Shown here: positions 48,773-59,563 of the stretch, in pieces
Layout: each line of letters opens with the position of its first letter
Position numbering within the stretch: position 1 is the first letter of the stretch
Assembly (NCBI GenBank): GCA_017399405.1
Contig: JAFQCT010000016.1
Span: 124,001-188,000, forward strand
Origin: Clostridia bacterium
Lineage (GTDB): Bacteria > Bacillota > Clostridia > Oscillospirales > Acutalibacteraceae
Direction: 5' to 3'
DNA: 64,000 nt
Program-made: the position numbers and the translations under genes
The notes under the pieces: model-generated
Seen by the model: the letters and a program-made list of their open reading frames with translations, nothing else
What the model was told of the DNA's origin: nothing
The model's database searches: none

Positions 48773-50173
48773 ATGAAAAAATACGATGTATTGGTGGTAG
48801 GTGCATCAACAACAGGTTGTTGGTTTGCCTATAAAATGGCTGAACAAGGCTTTAATGTTCTTGTAATTGAAAAAAATCAACCAGATGATGTTTCAAGGGA
48901 ATATGATGTTTTTCACATGGGTGAAAAAGATATGATTAAATTCGACCTTTTTATTCCCGAAGAAGGTGACCCATTACGCGAATTCTGTTTTGCACATTCA
49001 ACAATGGTTTCTCCTTATGGTAATCATCCTAAGGCTTGTGCAGAGGAACCTGTAATTGGCTTACATAAACATGATTATATTATGGCGATGGCTGACCGTG
49101 CTAAAAAAGTAGGTGCAGAAATCATTTATGGTGCATCATTTGCAGATTTTATATATGAAAATGATAAAATTGTAGGTGCTACATATAAAACTGTAGATGG
49201 CGAAAAGAAAGCCTATGCACGAATTGTTGCTGATTGTTCAGGTATTCCTGCAGTTGCCCGTACAAAACTTCCTGACGATTCAGTTGTAGGTAACTTCAAA
49301 CTTACAAATAAAGATATTCTTTATGTTGTTCTTTATTATGCAGAATATCTTAAAAATGACTTTAATCCTCGTGATTTAGATGGTTTCTTTATGCAATATA
49401 AATCATGGTCTGCACCATCAGATAATCCTAATGGTGCTATTCTTGGCATTGGTGCATTTTATGGTTATGATTATGCTGAAGAAATCTTCAAAGAAGACTT
49501 TATGAAAAATGTCAGCTTCCCTGAATACAAAGTTGAGCGTGTAGAAAAGGGTATGACACCTTACCACACATCAGTTTATTCACTTGTTGATGACGGATTT
49601 ATAGCGTTAGGTGATGCTGCTTGTCATACAAAACCAACTTGTGGTGAGGGGTGTACTTCTTCACTTGTTGCAGGCGAAATCGCAGTTGAAGTCATCTCAA
49701 ATCTTCTTAAATCAGATAATTATCTTACAAAAGAGAGAATGTGGAGTATAAACAAGCGTTATATGACTGCACAAGGCAAAGATTTTGACTCAATGCGACC
49801 GATTCTTATGGCTGTAATTTCAATGGATTATGATGAGGCTGAATATCTTTTTGCTAATGATATTATTTTCAGTGAGAAAATCCTTGGCGGAATGGATACA
49901 GGTCTTAATCTTTCAGGCAAAGATATTTCAAACATCGTAAAAGGTGTGGCAAAGGGCATAGCAAAAGGGAAAATTAAACCTTCAACTATTGGTAAGTTGC
50001 TCAAAGGTCTTGGACTTGGCGAAAAAGTTGGTAAGCTTTATGATAATTACCCTGAACAATATGAAGATTTCCAAGAATGGAAAGCAAAAGCAGATAAATT
50101 ATGGGCAGAAATCGGTCCTGTTGCTGATACTTGTGACCCTGAAATCCTTAAAAAATTAGGATATGAGAAATAA
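48773..50173 (+). CDS. FAD-dependent oxidoreductase (geranylgeranyl-reductase-like)
   Basis: A 466-residue flavoprotein with a Rossmann start VLVVGASTTGCWFAYKMAEQ and the second FAD motif FIALGDAACHTKPTCGEG near residue 275. This arrangement resembles the geranylgeranyl reductase/FixC group, which reduce isoprenoid double bonds or carry electrons. It lies after ispE, so action on isoprenoids is possible but unproven. A C-terminal domain of about 100 residues is rich in Lys and Gly. GGGGG precedes the ATG. Confidence 0.8.
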   Translation: MKKYDVLVVGASTTGCWFAYKMAEQGFNVLVIEKNQPDDVSREYDVFHMGEKDMIKFDLFIPEEGDPLREFCFAHSTMVSPYGNHPKACAEEPVIGLHKHDYIMAMADRAKKVGAEIIYGASFADFIYENDKIVGATYKTVDGEKKAYARIVADCSGIPAVARTKLPDDSVVGNFKLTNKDILYVVLYYAEYLKNDFNPRDLDGFFMQYKSWSAPSDNPNGAILGIGAFYGYDYAEEIFKEDFMKNVSFPEYKVERVEKGMTPYHTSVYSLVDDGFIALGDAACHTKPTCGEGCTSSLVAGEIAVEVISNLLKSDNYLTKERMWSINKRYMTAQGKDFDSMRPILMAVISMDYDEAEYLFANDIIFSEKILGGMDTGLNLSGKDISNIVKGVAKGIAKGKIKPSTIGKLLKGLGLGEKVGKLYDNYPEQYEDFQEWKAKADKLWAEIGPVADTCDPEILKKLGYEK

Positions 50174-50187
50174 TTAGGAGAATAGTA

Positions 50188-51651
50188 ATGAAAAAAGGCA
50201 TCCAAAAAGTAATTGACAAGGTTACTGATAAAATCAATACTAAATATGAGCCTTTTATAGATGTGTTTAACAAATCACTTCAACAGTATTGTGCAAAGAA
50301 TTCTATTGAATTTGTGCCTATTTTAATGGATGAAGCAGATTACTTAACAACTATTGAATTTCCAAAATTTAAGTTGCACCTTACATTTGATGTTGGCAGT
50401 TCAACGGGATACAGATTTATGGAGGGTACTCTTGAAGAAATGACTTCAGGATTTGTTGACCATAATAATCTTCTTACAAGGTTTGAGTTTGACTTTTCTG
50501 AATTGTTATTTTCTCCTTATGATATTCATAATGTAATCCGCTCAAATGACTTTTGTACTCTTGATTTTCATAGAATTTCTACACCTGATGATGTCGGCGA
50601 TTGCTTGCAGATTATTCTTGGATTTGTTGATAAAAATCTTATTGCAATAAATGGTTTAGCAGACAATCAACAATTGCAGAAAGAACTTACCGATAATTAT
50701 TTTGCCGATGTTGTTGCGTTAAAGAAAAAAGCAAAATTAAATGAGTTTGAAACTGATATTGAGTCTGCTATGGACTCTCACGAAACAGAACTTTATTGTC
50801 AGACCCGCCTTGAAAACGGTATTGATAAATATGTTCGTACGGGAAATAGTAAGGAACTTTGGTTTAGTTATTACAAGTATTCAAAGAAAAACAAACTCAT
50901 ACTTTTCGAAAAACGATATGTGGATTATCTTTTTGAAAATGATTTTCCCGAACCTGACAAGCAAATTTCAGATAATAGAAAATCTTTTGAGAGAGACAGA
51001 ATTGAATTTGTTGTTTCTTGCGTGGCTTCGTTTATTGTTGCATTTATATTATTGATTGCTGGTGTAACTCTAATAGATAAGATTGTGTATTCTTTATTTT
51101 ATAGTGACCAATTCTATGTAGCAGCCTTTGGCGAAGGTATTTTTATAGGAACTCTTTTATTATCATTAGTTGTCTTAATCTGGTCAATAGTTTGCAGAAT
51201 TAGACCTAATATCGCAAAAGCGTGGTTTAAGATGGGTGATGAGAAAAGAAAAAAATACATAAATATTGCAACGGTTTTAAGTGTTGTTGTATTAGTTATA
51301 AGTGTGTTTGGATTTGGATTTTCAGAAAAGACTACAATGGTTACTACTGATGCTTATGGCGTGTATTATAATGGGAAAAAAGTGGGCACAGAATTTACTC
51401 TTGAATTTGCTCATCTTCAGGGTTATGAAACATATGAACAAGGCAATACAATATTTGAACCTTATGATGATTATATAGTAATTCTTAATGGAGATTATGA
51501 AAACTATGTTTATTGTGATGGCTTGCTGAATGATGATGGCAGTGTCAATACAGAAGTTTTGAACTATATAAAGGGTAGTGGTTGCCCAGTTAAAACATAC
51601 CGAACGCTTGACGATTATTGTAAAGTACACAATATAAATATTGATGAATAA
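50188..51651 (+). CDS. membrane protein of unknown function, 487 residues
   Basis: I do not recognise a family. Residues 1-270 are soluble, acidic and helical. Three hydrophobic segments follow, at about 275-300, 312-335 and 355-375. After the last one, residues 380-487 form a probable extracytoplasmic domain rich in Tyr, Asn and Asp (for example GVYYNGKKVGTEFTLE). The gene starts 14 bases after the flavoprotein gene with TTAGGAG upstream and ends in a strong terminator. The large N-terminal part may be cytoplasmic. Confidence 0.7.
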   Translation: MKKGIQKVIDKVTDKINTKYEPFIDVFNKSLQQYCAKNSIEFVPILMDEADYLTTIEFPKFKLHLTFDVGSSTGYRFMEGTLEEMTSGFVDHNNLLTRFEFDFSELLFSPYDIHNVIRSNDFCTLDFHRISTPDDVGDCLQIILGFVDKNLIAINGLADNQQLQKELTDNYFADVVALKKKAKLNEFETDIESAMDSHETELYCQTRLENGIDKYVRTGNSKELWFSYYKYSKKNKLILFEKRYVDYLFENDFPEPDKQISDNRKSFERDRIEFVVSCVASFIVAFILLIAGVTLIDKIVYSLFYSDQFYVAAFGEGIFIGTLLLSLVVLIWSIVCRIRPNIAKAWFKMGDEKRKKYINIATVLSVVVLVISVFGFGFSEKTTMVTTDAYGVYYNGKKVGTEFTLEFAHLQGYETYEQGNTIFEPYDDYIVILNGDYENYVYCDGLLNDDGSVNTEVLNYIKGSGCPVKTYRTLDDYCKVHNINIDE

Positions 51652-51654
51652 AAA

Positions 51655-51690
51655 AGTACGGACTGATTCAACAATCAGTCCGTGCTTTTA
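51655..51690. terminator. bidirectional terminator between the membrane protein and the minus-strand operon
   Basis: A 14-base-pair stem (AGTACGGACTGATT with one wobble partner) and a CAAC loop, T-rich on the plus strand. The minus strand has TTTTT after the stem as well. Confidence 0.9.
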
Positions 51691-51696
51691 TTGTAT

Positions 51697-52392
51697 TCAC
51701 TTTTTTGTATTTTTCAAATGCAACTCTTTAAGTCCGTCAACTTCGTCACATATTTCTTTTAGATTACAAGTTGAACAGTCAAACATAACATTGTCAAAAA
51801 TATGATTTAATGCCGATGTTGTTTGACTAATCTTTTTTGCAATAGAATTTAACTTTTCAAAGTCATTAAAATCCGTTACAAAGTAGATTTCAGCACTTTT
51901 AACATTAGTGAAATTAAGATATTCTTGTAAAAGCGTGTTTCCGTATTCTGTAAAACTAACACCTGACTTTATTGCATTCTTACTTACCCTTATTTGCTCT
52001 CGCATATTAAGTGCAGACGCTCTTGTCATAAATCCATCAACTGACAAATGATATCTCAATGCTTCTAACTCTTTAATTTTATTAAAAGTATCTTGTTCAT
52101 TTTCAAAATCTTCAACTTGAACAAATACAAACTTACCAAAAGGGGAGTCAGCCTTGATTTCATTAAGGTCAGGACCTTGTAAGTAAACTGTGTTTGAAAA
52201 TGCCATATCACTTGTTACTGCAAGACTGCTGACACAAGGTTTATTGTTCCCACCAAGTTCAAATGCTGTATCCGATAAGAAAATTACAGAGTTTCTATCA
52301 CTTGTATTAAGTGATTTATTACTCTTGTTCAAAACTTTTGCATCAATTAAACTATTTTTAATTTCATTGATAAGGTTATTATATAATCTCAT
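51697..52392 (-). CDS. stand-alone acetyl-CoA synthase middle-domain-like protein
   Basis: The protein has 231 residues. From memory of the Moorella acetyl-CoA synthase sequence, several blocks align in order with its second (A2) domain: FELGGN with VEMGGN, GPDLNEI with GPDIDQI, PFGKFVFVQV with PLGILVDIYG, IRVSKNAIKSGVSFTEYG with LRVSKDAVAKGFRFKNYG, and MFDCSTC with FYSCVLC. Cys206, Cys209 and Cys215 fall where the first ligands of the A-cluster cubane lie. The protein then stops, so the catalytic domain with its CGC motif is missing. It is the last gene of the operon and its ATG overlaps the preceding stop. Role unknown; the A2 domain of the full enzyme faces the corrinoid methyl donor. Confidence 0.68.
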   Translation of the reverse strand: MRLYNNLINEIKNSLIDAKVLNKSNKSLNTSDRNSVIFLSDTAFELGGNNKPCVSSLAVTSDMAFSNTVYLQGPDLNEIKADSPFGKFVFVQVEDFENEQDTFNKIKELEALRYHLSVDGFMTRASALNMREQIRVSKNAIKSGVSFTEYGNTLLQEYLNFTNVKSAEIYFVTDFNDFEKLNSIAKKISQTTSALNHIFDNVMFDCSTCNLKEICDEVDGLKELHLKNTKK

Positions 52393-52547
52393 TATAATTT
52401 CTTATCTCTTTTCATTTTGTCATAGTGTTTTTGCAACCAATCATAAATAACTCTTACAAGCTTCATATCAAGGTTAAACCAGTAAATTGCAAAAGTTACA
52501 AGGAAAAATGCAAGAATAACACCAAGAATTATAAATAAAACTTCCAT
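52392..52547 (-). CDS. 51-residue membrane protein in the reductase operon
   Basis: A short gene with GGAGAAC 6 bases before its ATG. It begins one base after the activator gene ends and overlaps the next start in a TAATG junction. The product has one hydrophobic helix (about residues 3-24) and an amphipathic basic C-terminus with WLQKHYDKMKRDKK. Position inside a coupled operon argues that it is real. It could anchor one of the soluble proteins to the membrane. No family recognised. Confidence 0.68.
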   Translation of the reverse strand: MEVLFIILGVILAFFLVTFAIYWFNLDMKLVRVIYDWLQKHYDKMKRDKKL

Positions 52548-52548
52548 T

Positions 52549-53349
52549 TTAGTTCTCCTTTGCTAATCCCTTTTGACGAGCGTATTCGGCAGCACCTAAA
52601 GCACCCATAAGCTGTGGGTCAGTTTTTAACTCAACAACATTGATTTTGAGCACTTTTTCAATTGCCTTTTTAAGTCCGTCGTTTTTAGCACAACCACCAG
52701 TAAGAGTGATGCTATCAACTGCACCTGCTTTTTTAGCCATAACAAAGCAACGCTTTGCAACAGCTAACTGAATACCTGCTGCGATTTCATCCATAGGTTT
52801 GCCTTCACCAACAAGTGAAATAACTTCACTTTCTGCAAAAACTGTACACTGTGCGGTAATCGGAATAGTATTCTTTGCATTAAGTGAAAGTTTTGAAAAC
52901 TCAGGCAATGTCATTTCAAAAGCATTAGCCATAGCTTCATAAAATCGTCCTGTACCTGCAGCACACTTGTCATTCATAGCAAAGTTTTTAACAGTACCGT
53001 CTGTGTCAATAGAAATACCTTTAACATCCTGACCGCCAATGTCAATAATTGCTTTAACTTCAGGATTTGTAACATGTACACCCATAGCATGACAACTGAT
53101 TTCAGAAATGTTTTCGTCAGCAAAAGGAACTTTATTTCGTCCGTAACCGGTACCAATAAGATAAGAAAGTTCTTTTGCTGAATTAAGTCCTTCAACTTGT
53201 GCAACTGCGTCATCTAACGCAATTTCAGCACTTTGAACAGGGTTGATTTTACTTCTATTTGTAACATTGGCAACCATATTGCCATTTTCATCAAGGATAA
53301 CACATTTAGTGTAGGTAGAACCTACATCACAACCACCAAAATATTTCAT
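52549..53349 (-). CDS. 2-hydroxyacyl-CoA dehydratase activator-type ATPase (HgdC family)
   Basis: A 266-residue BadF/BadG/BcrA/BcrD-type ATPase of the ASKHA fold. The phosphate motif is DVGSTYTK at the N-terminus, a second is DIGGQDVK near residue 103. Cys129 in NDKCAAGTGRF and Cys168 in AQCTVFAESEV correspond in position to the two cysteines of HgdC that hold one [4Fe-4S] cluster between two subunits. Such proteins use ATP to push a single electron at very low potential into a partner. The partner is presumably encoded by the next two upstream genes. Confidence 0.92.
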   Translation of the reverse strand: MKYFGGCDVGSTYTKCVILDENGNMVANVTNRSKINPVQSAEIALDDAVAQVEGLNSAKELSYLIGTGYGRNKVPFADENISEISCHAMGVHVTNPEVKAIIDIGGQDVKGISIDTDGTVKNFAMNDKCAAGTGRFYEAMANAFEMTLPEFSKLSLNAKNTIPITAQCTVFAESEVISLVGEGKPMDEIAAGIQLAVAKRCFVMAKKAGAVDSITLTGGCAKNDGLKKAIEKVLKINVVELKTDPQLMGALGAAEYARQKGLAKEN

Positions 53350-53367
53350 ATATAAATCTCCTTTATA

Positions 53368-54897
53368 TTACCAAGCTAAATCGTCTTCAAAATCTACAAG
53401 AGATGGGTCAACAGGCTCTTCTTGTAAAACGGTTTGCATATATTTGTTAATCTGGTCACGCATTTCTCGTCTTGAAATAGTGCGTGGGTCCATAAGGTCT
53501 TGTTTAACCCAGATAAAGTTTACATTTTTCTCTCTTGCCTGGTCATCAAAAATACCGGTAAGACCATCCATACCCTTGCAAGAAATCTGGTCATACATAA
53601 TAACTGTATCAGCGTTGTATTCATCAACAATTCTCCAAAGCTCGTCAACAACATTTTGATAACCACCCTTGGTGTGCTTTCTCATAATTGAACGCTGATA
53701 AGTTTTAGCAAGGTCTTTAAGTGCTTGTTCTTTATCGTCTGTGTTAATTGGGAGATATGAAATCATTGTTTCCATATCCATAACAACATTTACGCCCCAA
53801 CAGTTTTCAAGCCAGTTTGCAAGGCTTGTATAGTAGTTAGCAGGGCAAGACCATACAACCGCTCTGTGACGCATTTCCTTTGATACAGGAGTTTTCTTTT
53901 CGTATGCTTTCATCATAATCTTATTAACTTTTTTGTCAACCTTAAGGAATTTCTCATTTGAACCACCTGAAAGGTTGAAATAGAAAATTCTGTAAAGCCA
54001 GAAGCAAGCACCTGTCATCTGTGGATAATCAGTTCTGTTAATATCCCACTTTTGAAGTTCGTATTCAAGTTGCTCATTATACATTTTCATTCCGTTGAAG
54101 AATGCGTCCCAATCAAACTTTTCACCAGTTTGTTTTTCAATGAATTCAATAAGTGACTTGATTTCATCAACACCGTATTCTTGAACATCTTCTCCGTTAT
54201 AACGAAGTGGAACACCGAAACAATGTGTAGGTAACTGAAGTCGTCTGTCAAGGAAAGAAGAGTTCATAATTGAACCATCACAAGGCATATTAGTTCCAAT
54301 CATACAACAACCCATTTTTGGATAGTCATCTTCAATTGCAACACCTGCTTCAGCACTTGGAAGAGGACATACATCAGCAGGAACACCAAAACTTTCAGTA
54401 ACTTCAAGATAAGGTGGTGTAATCTGTTGGTCAACCATTGAAGATAAGAAAATAGGTAATGTCTGTAAAGGCATTGGCTGAAGATTTGGGAATCCTAAAA
54501 ATACTTCGTTGGGAACAATCTCATCAGTAAGAACAATTTTCTTTGAGAGCTTGTTGTTAGGATTTATTTTCTCATCAGCACGGAAAGAAATATTGATAAG
54601 CTTTGTTGTGTGCTTAACAATCATATTGTAGTGAAGATGAGCGATTCTAAGTTGTGGACCACGAAGACCTGCTACATGTCTGTCAACAAAAGACGGAGCA
54701 GAAAGATAAGAAGCCATCCAACGATAACGCCATAAGCCTTTTACTGTAGAAACAGGAGCTTTAAGCACCATTTTAATCATATCTTTCCAAGTAATCAACC
54801 AACGGTAGTAGTCATACATTGTGTCTTTAAGACCACGCCATTCTCTGTGCTTTAATATGGCAGTATGTTCTTTGTAAAGTTTACCGTAATTAGCCAT
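53368..54897 (-). CDS. 2-hydroxyacyl-CoA dehydratase-like subunit, 509 residues
   Basis: A member of the HgdB/BcrB/double-cubane superfamily. It is longer than a normal subunit (about 380-430) because of an N-terminal extension of about 120 basic and aromatic residues. The candidate cluster ligands are Cys177 in ADVCPLPSAEAG, Cys206 in MPCDGS and Cys440 in YDQISCKGMDG, the usual three-cysteine pattern. The start at 54897 has GGAGGG upstream and overlaps the upstream gene by 8 bases; a longer in-frame extension lies in that gene. Substrate unknown; no CoA-transferase is adjacent. Confidence 0.85.
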   Translation of the reverse strand: MANYGKLYKEHTAILKHREWRGLKDTMYDYYRWLITWKDMIKMVLKAPVSTVKGLWRYRWMASYLSAPSFVDRHVAGLRGPQLRIAHLHYNMIVKHTTKLINISFRADEKINPNNKLSKKIVLTDEIVPNEVFLGFPNLQPMPLQTLPIFLSSMVDQQITPPYLEVTESFGVPADVCPLPSAEAGVAIEDDYPKMGCCMIGTNMPCDGSIMNSSFLDRRLQLPTHCFGVPLRYNGEDVQEYGVDEIKSLIEFIEKQTGEKFDWDAFFNGMKMYNEQLEYELQKWDINRTDYPQMTGACFWLYRIFYFNLSGGSNEKFLKVDKKVNKIMMKAYEKKTPVSKEMRHRAVVWSCPANYYTSLANWLENCWGVNVVMDMETMISYLPINTDDKEQALKDLAKTYQRSIMRKHTKGGYQNVVDELWRIVDEYNADTVIMYDQISCKGMDGLTGIFDDQAREKNVNFIWVKQDLMDPRTISRREMRDQINKYMQTVLQEEPVDPSLVDFEDDLAW

Positions 54898-56095
54898 TAT
54901 TCTTTCCCTCCTTTGCTTTTTGAATCTTTTTAATCTCAAGACTTTCAACAAAAGCTTGAACTCGAGTTCGGAGTTGTCCTGATGCAGATGCAGTGTACTG
55001 TCTGTCAACTGCAGCGGTAGGCACACCATAATCGCCACTCATAACATAAGAGGCGAGAGCACGCTCATAACCCCAATATTCGCAGAATTTAAGTTGTTCA
55101 TACATAACGCCATCTGCTTTGTATTCGTCAACAAGATATTTTACATAATCGCGTCTTTCTTGAACTTTTTCGTGACTCATATATCTTGGGCATTGGCTTG
55201 TCTTCATATAGTGAAGTGCAATTTGAGTGAGGACATCTTCATCATCATTGAGTATGATTTCTTCACGACCAGGAAGTGAGCCGAAACAGAAACGGTCAGC
55301 AACAACCAATGCACCACTGTCTTCAATAAGTTTTGTAAAGTCAGGGTCGTCCATTTCAGAGCCTACCACAACGATTTTTGCACGGTAATTCTTTTTAGCA
55401 TCAGGTTCCCTTGTCTTTAATTCTTCTGCAGTTTCACGAAGTTTATCAAGAATTAAATATTTAGGGCAGCAATATGTAGCAAGACAAAGCACATGGAATT
55501 CGTAGCCTGTAATTCTTGGACTTTCTTCTTTTCTGTATTCGCCGATTTCGGTAATAAGACGACAGATTTCATTGTGTTCTTCAACTGCTTTTCTTATAGC
55601 CTCATCACTTGTATCAATACCATAAACTTCATGAAGTTTATCAAGTACCTTGAGTTTTAATTGCTTTGTATAGTGCTTAACTGTGTGTTGCTCAATTTTG
55701 AATGGAGCATCAACAAAACTAACAAAAAACTTGTCATTAGGAACAAGTTTAAGCAACTCAAAATGCTCATAGCAACGGTTCATTTCTGAACAGGTTTCAG
55801 AGCCGATAAGAGCAGATAAGAAATTGTATCCACCCTCAATACCACGCTCAAGAAGTGCCTTTGAATAACCACAAAGGAATGAACTCATATAATAAGTTGC
55901 AATATCCATTGAGCCTGTACGCGGTGCACGAAGTCTTACAGAAAAGCAATTGTCAAGATTTAATAAAACCTCAGGAATATGATAGCAAGTATAAGCAATA
56001 GCCAACTTACCATCGTTTGTTGCTTGTTTTACAAGGTCATTGTTTGCTTCTTGTAACAAGTTTTCAAAATAGATTAAATGTTTTAAGTCTTTCAT
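54890..56095 (-). CDS. 2-hydroxyacyl-CoA dehydratase-like subunit, 401 residues
   Basis: The second subunit of the pair. Candidate iron-sulfur ligands are Cys75 in SSFLCGYSKALLE, Cys102 in GSETCSEMNR and Cys338 in YEQLKFCEYWGYE, a spacing like that of the 2-hydroxyisocaproyl-CoA dehydratase subunit HadB (84, 117, 346, from memory). The upstream gene cooC overlaps its start by one base. The two subunits probably form a heterodimer with one cubane each, or a double-cubane centre as in DCCP of Carboxydothermus. Confidence 0.85.
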   Translation of the reverse strand: MKDLKHLIYFENLLQEANNDLVKQATNDGKLAIAYTCYHIPEVLLNLDNCFSVRLRAPRTGSMDIATYYMSSFLCGYSKALLERGIEGGYNFLSALIGSETCSEMNRCYEHFELLKLVPNDKFFVSFVDAPFKIEQHTVKHYTKQLKLKVLDKLHEVYGIDTSDEAIRKAVEEHNEICRLITEIGEYRKEESPRITGYEFHVLCLATYCCPKYLILDKLRETAEELKTREPDAKKNYRAKIVVVGSEMDDPDFTKLIEDSGALVVADRFCFGSLPGREEIILNDDEDVLTQIALHYMKTSQCPRYMSHEKVQERRDYVKYLVDEYKADGVMYEQLKFCEYWGYERALASYVMSGDYGVPTAAVDRQYTASASGQLRTRVQAFVESLEIKKIQKAKEGKNNG

Positions 56096-56859
56096 TATAT
56101 AACCCCAATCTCACAAAGAGCTTTTTTTACACCTTTAACTACATTTGATTCAGGTGGAAGATTAAAAATATTTTCACCCTTAATGTCAAATACAGATAAG
56201 TTTTTATCATCTTCAATATAGCTAAGTATTGGAATACCATTTGTGTTAATATAGTCTTTAAGTGACTCATCAGCCATACGGTTAATAATTACACCAATTT
56301 TTTCATACATAACAAGTTCGTCAGCAACATTTTTGATTGTATTTATAACCTGACAACCTTTTTTACTTGGGTCGGTAATAAGTAGCAGGTGAGTGACCTT
56401 CTCCATAACTCTGCGGTTAATTTGTTCAATGCCCGCTTCACCATCAATAACAACATAATCAAACTCGTTTGAAAGAATTGAAATTACTTCTTTTAAGTAT
56501 GAGTTTATTTTACAGTAACAGCCTGCAGTTTCAGGTCTGCCAACTGCAATAAATGAGTATCCATCAGTTTCAATGAGTGCATCAAAAATTCTATATTTTG
56601 CTTCACCTAAAAGTTCAATAGCAGTTCTTGTGTCACCCTCGTCAACTGATGCAATAATCTCTTTTCTTATGTCATCAATAGTCATTTTAACATCAATGCC
56701 TAACGCTGTTGAAAGACCAACTGCAGGGTCAGCATCAATAGCTAAAATTTTCTTGTCAGGATACTTTTCTACAAGACACCTGACAATTGTTGCAGAAAGT
56801 GATGTTTTGCCAACTCCACCTTTACCTGCAACCGCAAGAATAGTTGCTTTCTTTTCCAT
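56095..56859 (-). CDS. cooC: CooC-like nickel-insertion ATPase
   Basis: A 254-residue SIMIBI-class P-loop ATPase (deviant Walker A box GKGGVGKTS at residues 12-20, with the signature lysine at 13, and DADPAVGLSTALG near 43). It has the CxC motif, Cys114 and Cys116 in AGCYCKIN, which in CooC1 of Carboxydothermus binds nickel at 112/114. This separates it from MinD/ParA and from NifH. CooC loads nickel into CO dehydrogenase and its relatives into acetyl-CoA synthase; no such full-length target is in the window. It overlaps the next gene by one base. Confidence 0.85.
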   Translation of the reverse strand: MEKKATILAVAGKGGVGKTSLSATIVRCLVEKYPDKKILAIDADPAVGLSTALGIDVKMTIDDIRKEIIASVDEGDTRTAIELLGEAKYRIFDALIETDGYSFIAVGRPETAGCYCKINSYLKEVISILSNEFDYVVIDGEAGIEQINRRVMEKVTHLLLITDPSKKGCQVINTIKNVADELVMYEKIGVIINRMADESLKDYINTNGIPILSYIEDDKNLSVFDIKGENIFNLPPESNVVKGVKKALCEIGVI

Positions 56860-56868
56860 TTTATCACC

Positions 56869-57519
56869 TTATTTGATTGCTTTTGGCATATTCCATTTGA
56901 ATGCCATAGCAAGAACTCTTAAAATAAATGTTACTGCCAAACCTAAAATCATAGCAAAACTGTCTTCAAGCCCAATACTTTCACTGTAAATGTACAACAA
57001 ATAATATGTTGAAGCTCCCGCAATAGCCGCTATTGCATAAATTCGTTTAACCAATACAAACGGAGTTGAATTCGTAAGCACATCACGAAGCATACCACCG
57101 CAAATACAGGTGATTGCACCACAAGTAATACTGATTAAAGCATTATCTTCATATCCTTGTTCAAATGCAACCTTTACGCCCATAACTGCGAAAATACCAA
57201 GACCTAATGCGTCAAAAATATCGTTTATGTGTTCAATTCGTGTTTCATTCTGCAAATATGTATTGCTAAACTTTCTTGCAAAAAGAAAAACAATAACTGA
57301 AACGATTGTTGAAAGTAAAAGGTATTCTTTTGAGTTGAAAAATGCAGGTGGTGTAAAACTGAAAATAACATCGCGTGTAAGACCGCCACCAAGAGTAGTG
57401 ATTATGGCAAGAAGAATAACACCAAAAAGGTCAGTTTTTCTTCTAATTGCCACCATTGCACCTGAAACCGAAAATGCAACAACACCAATTGACTCAATAA
57501 TTGTATAGAATAATTCCAT
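56869..57519 (-). CDS. UPF0126/TRIC-like membrane protein
   Basis: A 216-residue integral membrane protein with two repeats of about 85 residues (first with GVILLAIITTLGGGLTRDV, second with ITCGAITCICGGMLRDVL). This is the UPF0126 (glycine-transporter-like, TRIC channel) family with a GGGxxRD turn in each repeat. Members are thought to be cation or amino-acid channels. It is 9 bases before cooC on the minus strand and probably heads the operon. GGAGAT precedes the ATG. Confidence 0.88.
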   Translation of the reverse strand: MELFYTIIESIGVVAFSVSGAMVAIRRKTDLFGVILLAIITTLGGGLTRDVIFSFTPPAFFNSKEYLLLSTIVSVIVFLFARKFSNTYLQNETRIEHINDIFDALGLGIFAVMGVKVAFEQGYEDNALISITCGAITCICGGMLRDVLTNSTPFVLVKRIYAIAAIAGASTYYLLYIYSESIGLEDSFAMILGLAVTFILRVLAMAFKWNMPKAIK

Positions 57520-59339: not shown

Positions 59340-59563
59340 ACACACCCTGCGAAGCACGACAACTGCAAATGATATTAACCCAACACACTATAAAAGGGAG
59401 CTTGTACTCGGTTCATTGGGAGCAGACCTCCCGTCAATGACGGACGAAGGGAGCACAGATATGAAACGGAAAGCACCCACCTGCATTAACACGCAGGTTA
59501 GTATTCATTGCAACCGACTTTGCGGGGGCCGTAACAGATACTGCATGTATCTGTTATTTTTTT
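59340..59563 (+). ncRNA. ssrS: probable 6S RNA
   Basis: A structured, non-coding segment of about 190 bases. CCCTGCGAAG (59345-59354) and CTTTGCGGGG (59518-59527) form a 10-base-pair closing stem with only G-U exceptions, and inner hairpins include ACCTGC/GCAGGT (59489-59508) and a CTCCC/GGGAG arm near 59440. A strong terminator follows. Length, closing stem and the motif AAGCACCCACCTGC match my memory of clostridial 6S RNA, which binds the housekeeping polymerase as a promoter mimic. A covariance search would be decisive. The reading frame through it belongs to a false extension of spoIIR. Confidence 0.72.
59533..59563 (+). terminator. intrinsic terminator of the probable 6S RNA
   Basis: A perfect 9-base-pair stem (AACAGATAC/GTATCTGTT) with a five-base loop and seven T. 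Confidence 0.92.

What the first reader, a model, noticed from the sequence alone, without database searches (positions are those of the whole stretch)
51697..57519. Operon joining a CooC-like nickel ATPase, an ATP-driven dehydratase-type reductase and an acetyl-CoA synthase fragment
Seven minus-strand genes are spaced at most 18 bases apart and mostly overlap. They encode a UPF0126 membrane protein, CooC (CxC intact), two HgdA/B-type subunits (three candidate cluster cysteines each), an HgdC-type activator (Cys129, Cys168), a 51-residue membrane protein and an acetyl-CoA synthase A2-like protein. None of the expected companions is present: no CO dehydrogenase, complete acetyl-CoA synthase, CoA transferase, electron-transfer flavoprotein or amino-acid pathway. 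Established: HgdC-type proteins inject low-potential electrons with ATP, and CooC loads nickel. Inference: this is an uncharacterised ATP-dependent reductase or activase whose metal centre needs CooC. A corrinoid or nickel protein is a plausible target, because the A2 domain of the full enzyme faces the corrinoid donor.
Basis: partly seen in the sequence, partly recalled or inferred. Interest (0 to 1): 0.88.

Follow-up and report, generated by a model that had tools for sequence, protein, structure and literature searches.

The report
ATP-driven reductase with nickel-type helpers
A block of six genes, found in the same order in many gut and rumen bacteria, appears to build an ATP-powered metal enzyme that borrows parts from three separate textbook systems; we found no description of it in the papers we could search, and what it reduces is unknown.

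The parts
51697..52392 (-). ACS-middle-domain-like protein, 231 aa (here 'ACS2L'); residues about 27-199 have the ACS/CdhC middle-domain fold; C-terminal DCxxCxLKxICDEV (C206, C209, C215)
52392..52547 (-). 51-aa protein with one hydrophobic stretch (by eye); likely membrane tether
   Evidence: No Pfam, NCBIfam or PHROG family. A similar small ORF stands between activase and ACS2L in 45 of the 60 complete loci and before CooC in two more (orders); one also follows HgdBA in L172 and L187
52549..53349 (-). ASKHA activase (archerase) with C129 and C168 for the intersubunit [4Fe-4S]
53368..54897 (-). HgdA/BzdO-side HGD-D subunit, 509 aa, with about 155 extra N-terminal residues; C177, C206, C440 plus C198 and C366
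   Evidence: PF06050 158.5 bits, scored on the longer frame; aligned with BzdO, MbdO and the dehydratase alpha chain; C177, C198, C206, C366 64/64, C440 63/63; C198 and C366 columns have no cysteine in five other alpha-side proteins, though three of these have one 3-4 residues from the C198 column
54890..56095 (-). HgdB/BzdN-side HGD-D subunit, 401 aa, with all six double-cubane cysteine positions: C37, C75, C102, C270, C302, C338
   Evidence: PF06050 314.4 bits; pairs with BzdN Cys36/73/100/263/293/327 in the alignment, ligand list from PMC11971306; 68 or 69 of 69
56095..56859 (-). CooC-type P-loop ATPase with CxC (C114, C116)
   Evidence: Best solved relative CooC 3kje_A, E 1.1e-14, CYC motif aligned; CxC 65 and 66 of 66
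56869..57519 (-). UPF0126 / Gly_transporter membrane protein; probably co-transcribed here but not part of the conserved cassette
   Evidence: PF03458; seen with the cassette only in L029 and L030 of 80 loci
51652..51689 (.). two-way intrinsic-terminator-like hairpin closing the operon
   Evidence: 17-pair stem on + and 11-pair on - with T tails; a consensus match

Best explanation
The cassette makes a membrane-tethered, ATP-driven reductase of the benzoyl-CoA reductase / double-cubane protein kind. Electrons pass from a ferredoxin-like donor to the activase [4Fe-4S], are driven by ATP into an [8Fe-9S] double cubane in the HgdB-like subunit, and go on to a [4Fe-4S]-type site in the HgdA-like subunit, which in this clade has two additional invariant cysteines. 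The CooC-type ATPase and the ACS-middle-domain-like protein (ACS2L) form a dedicated metal-handling pair: ACS2L holds a metal or Fe-S cluster on its CxxCx5C tail, CooC loads it (probably nickel), and the pair builds, completes or reactivates the HgdA-side centre, one set serving several HgdBA pairs in a cell. The enzyme most likely saturates a conjugated C=C or aryl substrate, in some hosts with a flavin/Fe-S ene-reductase (Old Yellow type or IsrA type). Shown: gene order, co-occurrence, folds, cysteine positions, copy numbers. Inferred: cluster types, nickel, electron path, membrane tether, substrate.
For: CooC, HgdB, HgdA, activase and ACS2L together in 60 of 80 loci, 53 of the 57 with at least 6 kb upstream. 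Complete in 6 of the 7 genomes with a short ACS2L found by profile, not by the motif scan, in a class sample of 391; the seventh is cut by its contig end. In 5 of 5 genomes whose locus is split or cut, a close HgdB (57-80% identity) is encoded elsewhere. Six double-cubane cysteine positions kept; a HadC-like control lacks two, a DCCP control keeps all six. ACS2L fold and tail position. 18 of 80 loci show two HgdA and/or HgdB genes; 17 of these have one CooC, one activase and one ACS2L in the DNA fetched. CooC adjoins ACS2L even without HgdAB next to them (L073, L075). Operon-mates: OYE starts within 1 kb in 10 of 65 loci with 2.5 kb downstream; IsrA-like genes lie within or convergent to the cassette or HgdBA in six genomes (L078, L080, L100, L136, L186, L187). 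IsrA-like frames of 850 aa or more in 28 of 54 cassette hosts, one with an internal stop; in the class sample in 4 of 7 genomes with and 28 of 384 without the cassette (at most 5 candidates scored per genome; Fisher p 0.001, not corrected for kinship).
Against: No metal, cluster or activity was measured. The window's own genome has no IsrA-like match and its neighbours give no substrate; 26 of 54 hosts lack a long IsrA-like frame. A second CooC+ACS2L set stands beside a second HgdBA pair in L098, which fits a stoichiometric subunit better than a shared factor. A CooC-type ATPase also lies in another HGD-D cluster without ACS2L (L173), so CooC need not act on ACS2L. BzdO His131 has no counterpart at or next to C206. 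The C198 column may be an alignment shift: three outside proteins have a cysteine 3-4 residues off. Most loci have no OYE or IsrA neighbour. The invariant lysine of the tail was a seed effect: L134-L138 do not keep it.
Confidence: 0.42

Rival explanations
1. ACS2L is a catalytic or electron-exit subunit, not a maturation factor: CooC builds a nickel-Fe-S site on its CxxCx5C tail, the HgdAB/activase unit reduces that site at very low potential, and ACS2L acts on the substrate.
For: ACS2L starts its cysteine motif near where the ACS A-cluster cysteines begin; CooC and ACS2L adjoin as a minimal unit in L073, L075 and a second copy in L098; AcsF, a CooC relative (recalled), loads nickel into ACS (title of a reference of PMC10134865 seen).
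Against: It lacks the Cx2Cx8C A-cluster spacing and the whole ACS C-terminal domain; one ACS2L goes with two HgdBA pairs in 17 of 18 multi-pair loci, unlike a stoichiometric subunit.
Confidence: 0.25
2. The cassette is a reactivase: the HgdAB/activase unit injects electrons into the metal site of a separate partner (IsrA-type or OYE-type oxidoreductase, or another nickel protein).
For: IsrA-like genes in one operon-like run with HgdBA (L187) or with the whole cassette (L078, L100, L136), and convergent in L080 and L186; HypA follows IsrA in L136 (PF01155) and, by eye, in L078.
Against: The window's genome and 25 more of 54 hosts have no long IsrA-like frame yet keep the cassette; OYE is a close downstream neighbour in 10 of 65 loci.
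Confidence: 0.15
3. An ordinary 2-hydroxyacyl-CoA dehydratase of amino-acid fermentation with chance neighbours.
For: HGD-D and activase families are shared with dehydratases.
Against: Set conserved in 53 of 57 loci; separate 15-row clade, support 100/100, away from the HadC-like and DCCP rows; C37 and C270 kept, absent in the HadC-like control; the dehydratase models of NCBIfam score far below cut-off (90 of 700 bits).
Confidence: 0.06
4. A corrinoid or CoFeSP-directed system or displaced CODH/ACS part.
For: [quoted passage not shown] G184, G594 and Blautia parvula carry ACS or CODH besides the cassette.
Against: CODH over cut-off in 2 of 50 host genomes plus one partial match; convincing CoFeSP in 1 of 50; none of either in the window's genome.
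Confidence: 0.04

Closest known systems
Class I benzoyl-CoA reductase, Bzd/Mbd type (BzdNO-PQ, MbdONQP)
   Same: Double-cubane cysteine set in the BzdN-side subunit, three cysteines matching the BzdO-side site, activase closest to MbdQ among solved structures
   Different: One activase gene not two, about 155 extra N-terminal residues and two extra cysteines on the BzdO side, no His131 counterpart, CooC and ACS2L added, no aromatic pathway genes in the neighbourhood
Double-cubane cluster protein and its reductase (DCCP/DCCP-R; NF040772)
   Same: Six cysteine positions, single activase gene; best NCBIfam model for the HgdB-like subunit
   Different: 135.7 bits against a cut-off of 350; two different subunits; separate clade; the one DCCP locus examined had no CooC or ACS2L (L177)
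Acetyl-CoA synthase / CdhC middle domain
   Different: No CODH-binding or A-cluster domain; CxxCx5C tail instead
CooC / AcsF nickel ATPases
   Same: P-loop ATPase with CxC, best solved relative CooC
   Different: No CODH or full ACS beside it, and none found in the window's genome
IsrA (putative isoprene reductase) operons with HypA/HypB
   Same: An IsrA homologue, twice with HypA, joins the cassette in some hosts; both kinds of cluster pair an Fe-S reductase with nickel-type chaperones
   Different: HGD-D, activase, CooC and ACS2L are not among the IsrA neighbours named in the sections and passages read (PMC10134865; its supplementary tables were not seen)

Membership tests
Acetyl-CoA synthase (ACS/CdhC) | Middle-domain fold | tested here: met
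Acetyl-CoA synthase (ACS/CdhC) | A-cluster Cx2Cx8C motif and C-terminal catalytic domain | tested here: not met
   20 of 21 ACS ORFs extracted have Cx2Cx8C (the other, L004, is cut by its contig); ACS2L has Cx2Cx5C and ends at 231
Class I benzoyl-CoA reductase | Six cysteines of the [8Fe-9S] cluster | tested here: met
   All six BzdN positions kept in 68 or 69 of 69; the cluster itself was not tested
Class I benzoyl-CoA reductase | Catalytic-subunit His131 next to the cluster | tested here: not met
   G208/S209 at that place, allowing one position of alignment error
Class I benzoyl-CoA reductase | Two different activase subunits; curated Bzd/Bcr models | tested here: not met
   One activase gene in the operon; all Bzd/Bcr models below cut-off
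Double-cubane cluster protein (NF040772) | Curated score 350 | tested here: not met
   135.7 and 54.2 bits
2-hydroxyacyl-CoA dehydratase | Groups with dehydratase subunits | tested here: not met
   Separate 15-row clade, 100/100; the dehydratase references are one HadBC-like pair at 457 and 519 bits, itself below the equivalog cut-offs 700 and 750
CooC nickel ATPase | P-loop ATPase with CxC | tested here: met
CooC nickel ATPase | Binds and delivers nickel | not testable with these tools
   needs protein
Archerase activase | ASKHA-type activase with two cluster cysteines per subunit | tested here: met
   TIGR00241 over cut-off; C129, C168 kept; the cluster was not tested
IsrA clade 9 (for the neighbour in L078, L080, L100) | About 900 aa with two CxC pairs near 180 and 254, Fer4 near 289 and 848, PF14691 and PF07992 | tested here: met
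   L100: CxC at 185-187 and 259-261, Fer4 288-310 and 838-859, PF14691, PF07992; these cysteines are invariant in the three against PMC10134865 section 9. L136, L186 and L187 by similarity only (834-858 bits). No tree with IsrA itself was made

The most novel reading that the evidence does not exclude
The HgdA-like subunit, with its two extra invariant cysteines, carries a nickel-containing iron-sulfur cluster assembled by CooC on the ACS-like scaffold, making this the first ATP-driven double-cubane enzyme with a nickel active site: a fourth way, beside nitrogenase, benzoyl-CoA reductase and CODH/ACS, to do very low potential chemistry, used by gut and rumen bacteria to saturate conjugated hydrocarbons or acids.
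Probability: 0.2. Interest if true: 0.92.

Novelty: new variant of a known kind. Interest (0 to 1): 0.72.

Why it matters
It joins three textbook low-potential metal systems (double cubane, archerase, ACS/CooC) in one conserved unit of rumen and gut Clostridia, Butyrivibrio among them. If the CooC/ACS-like pair matures or reactivates the reductase, it gives a first handle on how unusual Fe-S clusters of this family are made, which to my knowledge is an open question (recalled). The link to IsrA-like and Old Yellow type reductases points to anaerobic hydrogenation of unsaturated compounds; a tie to rumen fat biohydrogenation is a lead only. Several hosts are isolates (Butyrivibrio strains, Blautia parvula; titles), so it can be tested.

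Tried and rejected
UPF0126 as a partner: rejected, seen in 2 of 80 loci. Displaced CODH/ACS and corrinoid target. CdhD: 22 of 50 genomes match and 8 pass the cut-off, but only G327 does so at length (263.9 bits); the other 21 are 18-31 bits inside frames of 772-911 aa, which I read as methionine synthase without checking. CODH: 6 of 50 match at E 0.001, 2 over cut-off, one partial at 257 bits, three weak. The 876-residue own-genome hit to the IsrA-like query is, by its translation, a different protein, and the IsrA N-terminal profile has no match there. First ACS2L model from three sequences was poor (pLDDT 56) and was replaced by a 59-sequence one. The hhalign alignment ends at residue 184, so the tail cysteines are set beside the A cluster by position only. 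NiFe hydrogenase: no match in own genome. Other HGD-D loci as controls: L174-L177 show no CooC or ACS2L; L171 has a HgdBA pair of this clade alone and L172 one with a one-helix protein; L173 has CooC but no ACS2L. Rumen fat-biohydrogenation search: listing and abstract starts only, no gene set seen. Searches for the gene set or its parts in the held library listed no paper whose title or abstract start describes it; I read passages of PMC10134865, PMC10418091, PMC7306483, PMC11971306, PMC12289521, PMC7478625 and PMC11574389, and sections 8 and 9 of the first. Most subscription papers and bioRxiv were not searchable. PHROG hit to the ACS2L tail (E 2.6e-4) was not followed.

Dropped or chosen before counting: one search counted 84 ACS2L rows after leaving out L016 and L026 as duplicates; L025 and L094 have equal contig length and equal scores and are probably one genome. 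One search used only hits above set scores and lengths (69, 64, 74 and 66 rows) and dropped L094. Searches examined 50 genomes (47 of the 80 scan loci plus three), 54 (46 of 80 plus eight), picked by me by locus length and spread, so they are not a random sample. Searches scored at most 7 and 5 candidates per genome. The genome scan kept the best 80 of 101 and used K[EA][IV]CD[EQ]V[ED] as one of two seeds, so K212 and C215 conservation there is partly built in; C206 and C209 are not. The five loci found by profile (L134-L138) keep Cx2Cx5C but not the lysine. Copy counts cover only the DNA fetched.
Full report
What is there. The seven minus-strand ORFs exist as described. Pfam and NCBIfam name them UPF0126/Gly_transporter, a P-loop ATPase of the MinD/ParA kind, two HGD-D proteins, an acyl-CoA dehydratase activase, a 51-residue protein without family, and a CdhC (PF03598) match. 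The CooC assignment rests on the best solved relative, CooC 3kje, with the CYC motif aligned. A two-way terminator-like hairpin follows the last gene.

A conserved cassette. A scan of genome contigs (one genome for each of 84,980 species) with three ACS-like proteins kept 80 loci of 101 relatives. With the window proteins as queries, 60 of the 80 hold CooC, HgdB, HgdA, activase and ACS2L together; of 57 loci with at least 6 kb upstream, 53 do. The four exceptions are L051, L058, L066 and L073; L075 is cut by its contig. In all five genomes a close HgdB homologue (57-80% identity) is encoded elsewhere; in L051 and L066 a further HgdBA pair also stands upstream in the same locus. I read the surroundings of the HgdB in four of the five: HgdB-HgdA-activase-helix (L186, L188), HgdB-HgdA-helix (L187) and HgdB-HgdA (L189). 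To avoid the bias of the motif-based scan I searched 391 genomes of the class by profile: 7 have the short protein (177-323 bits) and 4 match inside longer frames (537-719 aa). The cassette is complete in 6 of the 7 (window, G223, G360, G202, G343, G184) and cut by the contig end in G007. Named hosts include Butyrivibrio, Blautia parvula, Mogibacterium and Lachnospiraceae MAGs and one spirochaete MAG. A deeper variant in another lineage of the phylum (G594) has CooC, ACS2L, two activases and two HGD-D subunits beside acyl-CoA dehydrogenase-like genes.

Not CODH/ACS. The window's genome (97.5% complete) has no other CdhC match, no CODH and no CdhD match. Among 50 host genomes 2 have CODH over cut-off and one a partial match; one has a convincing corrinoid protein. 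G184 and G594 do carry full-length ACS as well, so the two can coexist.

The reductase. In the phmmer alignment with BzdN the HgdB-like C37, C75, C102, C270, C302 and C338 pair with Cys36, 73, 100, 263, 293 and 327, the [8Fe-9S] ligands listed in PMC11971306 (passages read). They are kept in 68 or 69 of 69 relatives. A HadC-like control (L156) lacks the first and fourth; a DCCP above its curated cut-off (L141) has all six. The HgdA-like subunit aligns with the BzdO/MbdO/dehydratase-alpha side, with C177, C206 and C440 at the cluster positions. C198 and C366 are invariant in 64 rows and absent from those columns in five other alpha-side proteins; three of the five have a cysteine 3-4 residues from the C198 column, so C366 is the safer of the two. 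The BzdO acid/base His131 has no counterpart. The tree puts the HgdB rows in a 15-row clade with support 100/100, apart from the HadC-like and DCCP rows; long branches make the deeper order unsure. The window's genome has only this one HGD-D pair.

How it may work. In 18 of 80 loci two HgdA and/or HgdB genes stand in the fetched DNA, and in 17 of these there is one CooC, one activase and one ACS2L; HgdBA pairs of this clade also stand apart from these genes on other contigs (L171, L172). That favours CooC and ACS2L as shared factors, like the activase, over stoichiometric subunits, and I therefore prefer a metal-handling role; L098, with two CooC and two ACS2L, points the other way. Nickel is inferred from the CooC and ACS kinship only.

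Partners. An Old Yellow type enzyme (best NCBIfam models bilirubin reductase long form and BaiCD, both below cut-off) starts within 1 kb downstream in 10 of 65 loci with enough DNA; the like family lies within about 9 kb in 15 of 81 loci. A homologue of IsrA, the putative isoprene reductase for which nickel was proposed (PMC10134865: abstract, sections 8 and 9 and passages read), is the next gene in L078, L100 and L136, convergent in L080 and L186, and directly before HgdBA on one strand in L187. IsrA-like frames of 850 aa or more occur in 28 of 54 cassette hosts, one of them with an internal stop. In the class sample 4 of 7 cassette genomes against 28 of 384 others have one (at most 5 candidates scored per genome; Fisher p 0.001; two of the four are in one genus). 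The window's genome has none. This suggests C=C reduction but does not name the substrate.

Verdict. A real and conserved system, not described in the papers that I could search: a new variant of the ATP-driven double-cubane reductases.

Noticed in passing
window 59341-59532 (+): 6S RNA (RF00013, 61.1 bits) near the region.
   Followed up: no
L173 (6267-12973 region): A second kind of HGD-D cluster with a CooC-type ATPase (CxC as GCFC), two activases and, by eye, an AMP-ligase and a thiolase, without the ACS-like protein.
   Followed up: partly
L025 3454-6336 and L068, L070, L086, L090, L094, L101, L102: A second, divergent HgdB-HgdA pair with its own one-helix-like ORF next to the cassette, facing away.
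   Followed up: partly
L187 5317-11200: IsrA-like gene directly followed by HgdB, HgdA and a one-helix protein on one strand (15-base gap): a direct link between IsrA homologues and HGD-D reductases.
   Followed up: partly
L138 8596-19231: Deep variant: CooC, ACS-like protein, two activases, two HGD-D subunits, a 594-aa protein without family and two acyl-CoA dehydrogenase-like genes.
   Followed up: partly
window 51697-51790 (ACS-like residues 200-230): The CxxCx5C tail weakly matches a small PHROG family of unknown function, phrog_22748 (E 2.6e-4).
   Followed up: no
window 48773-51651 (+): Convergent FAD protein like digeranylgeranylglycerophospholipid reductase (below cut-off) and a 487-aa protein without family; neither was found in the DNA of the 80 loci.
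   Followed up: partly
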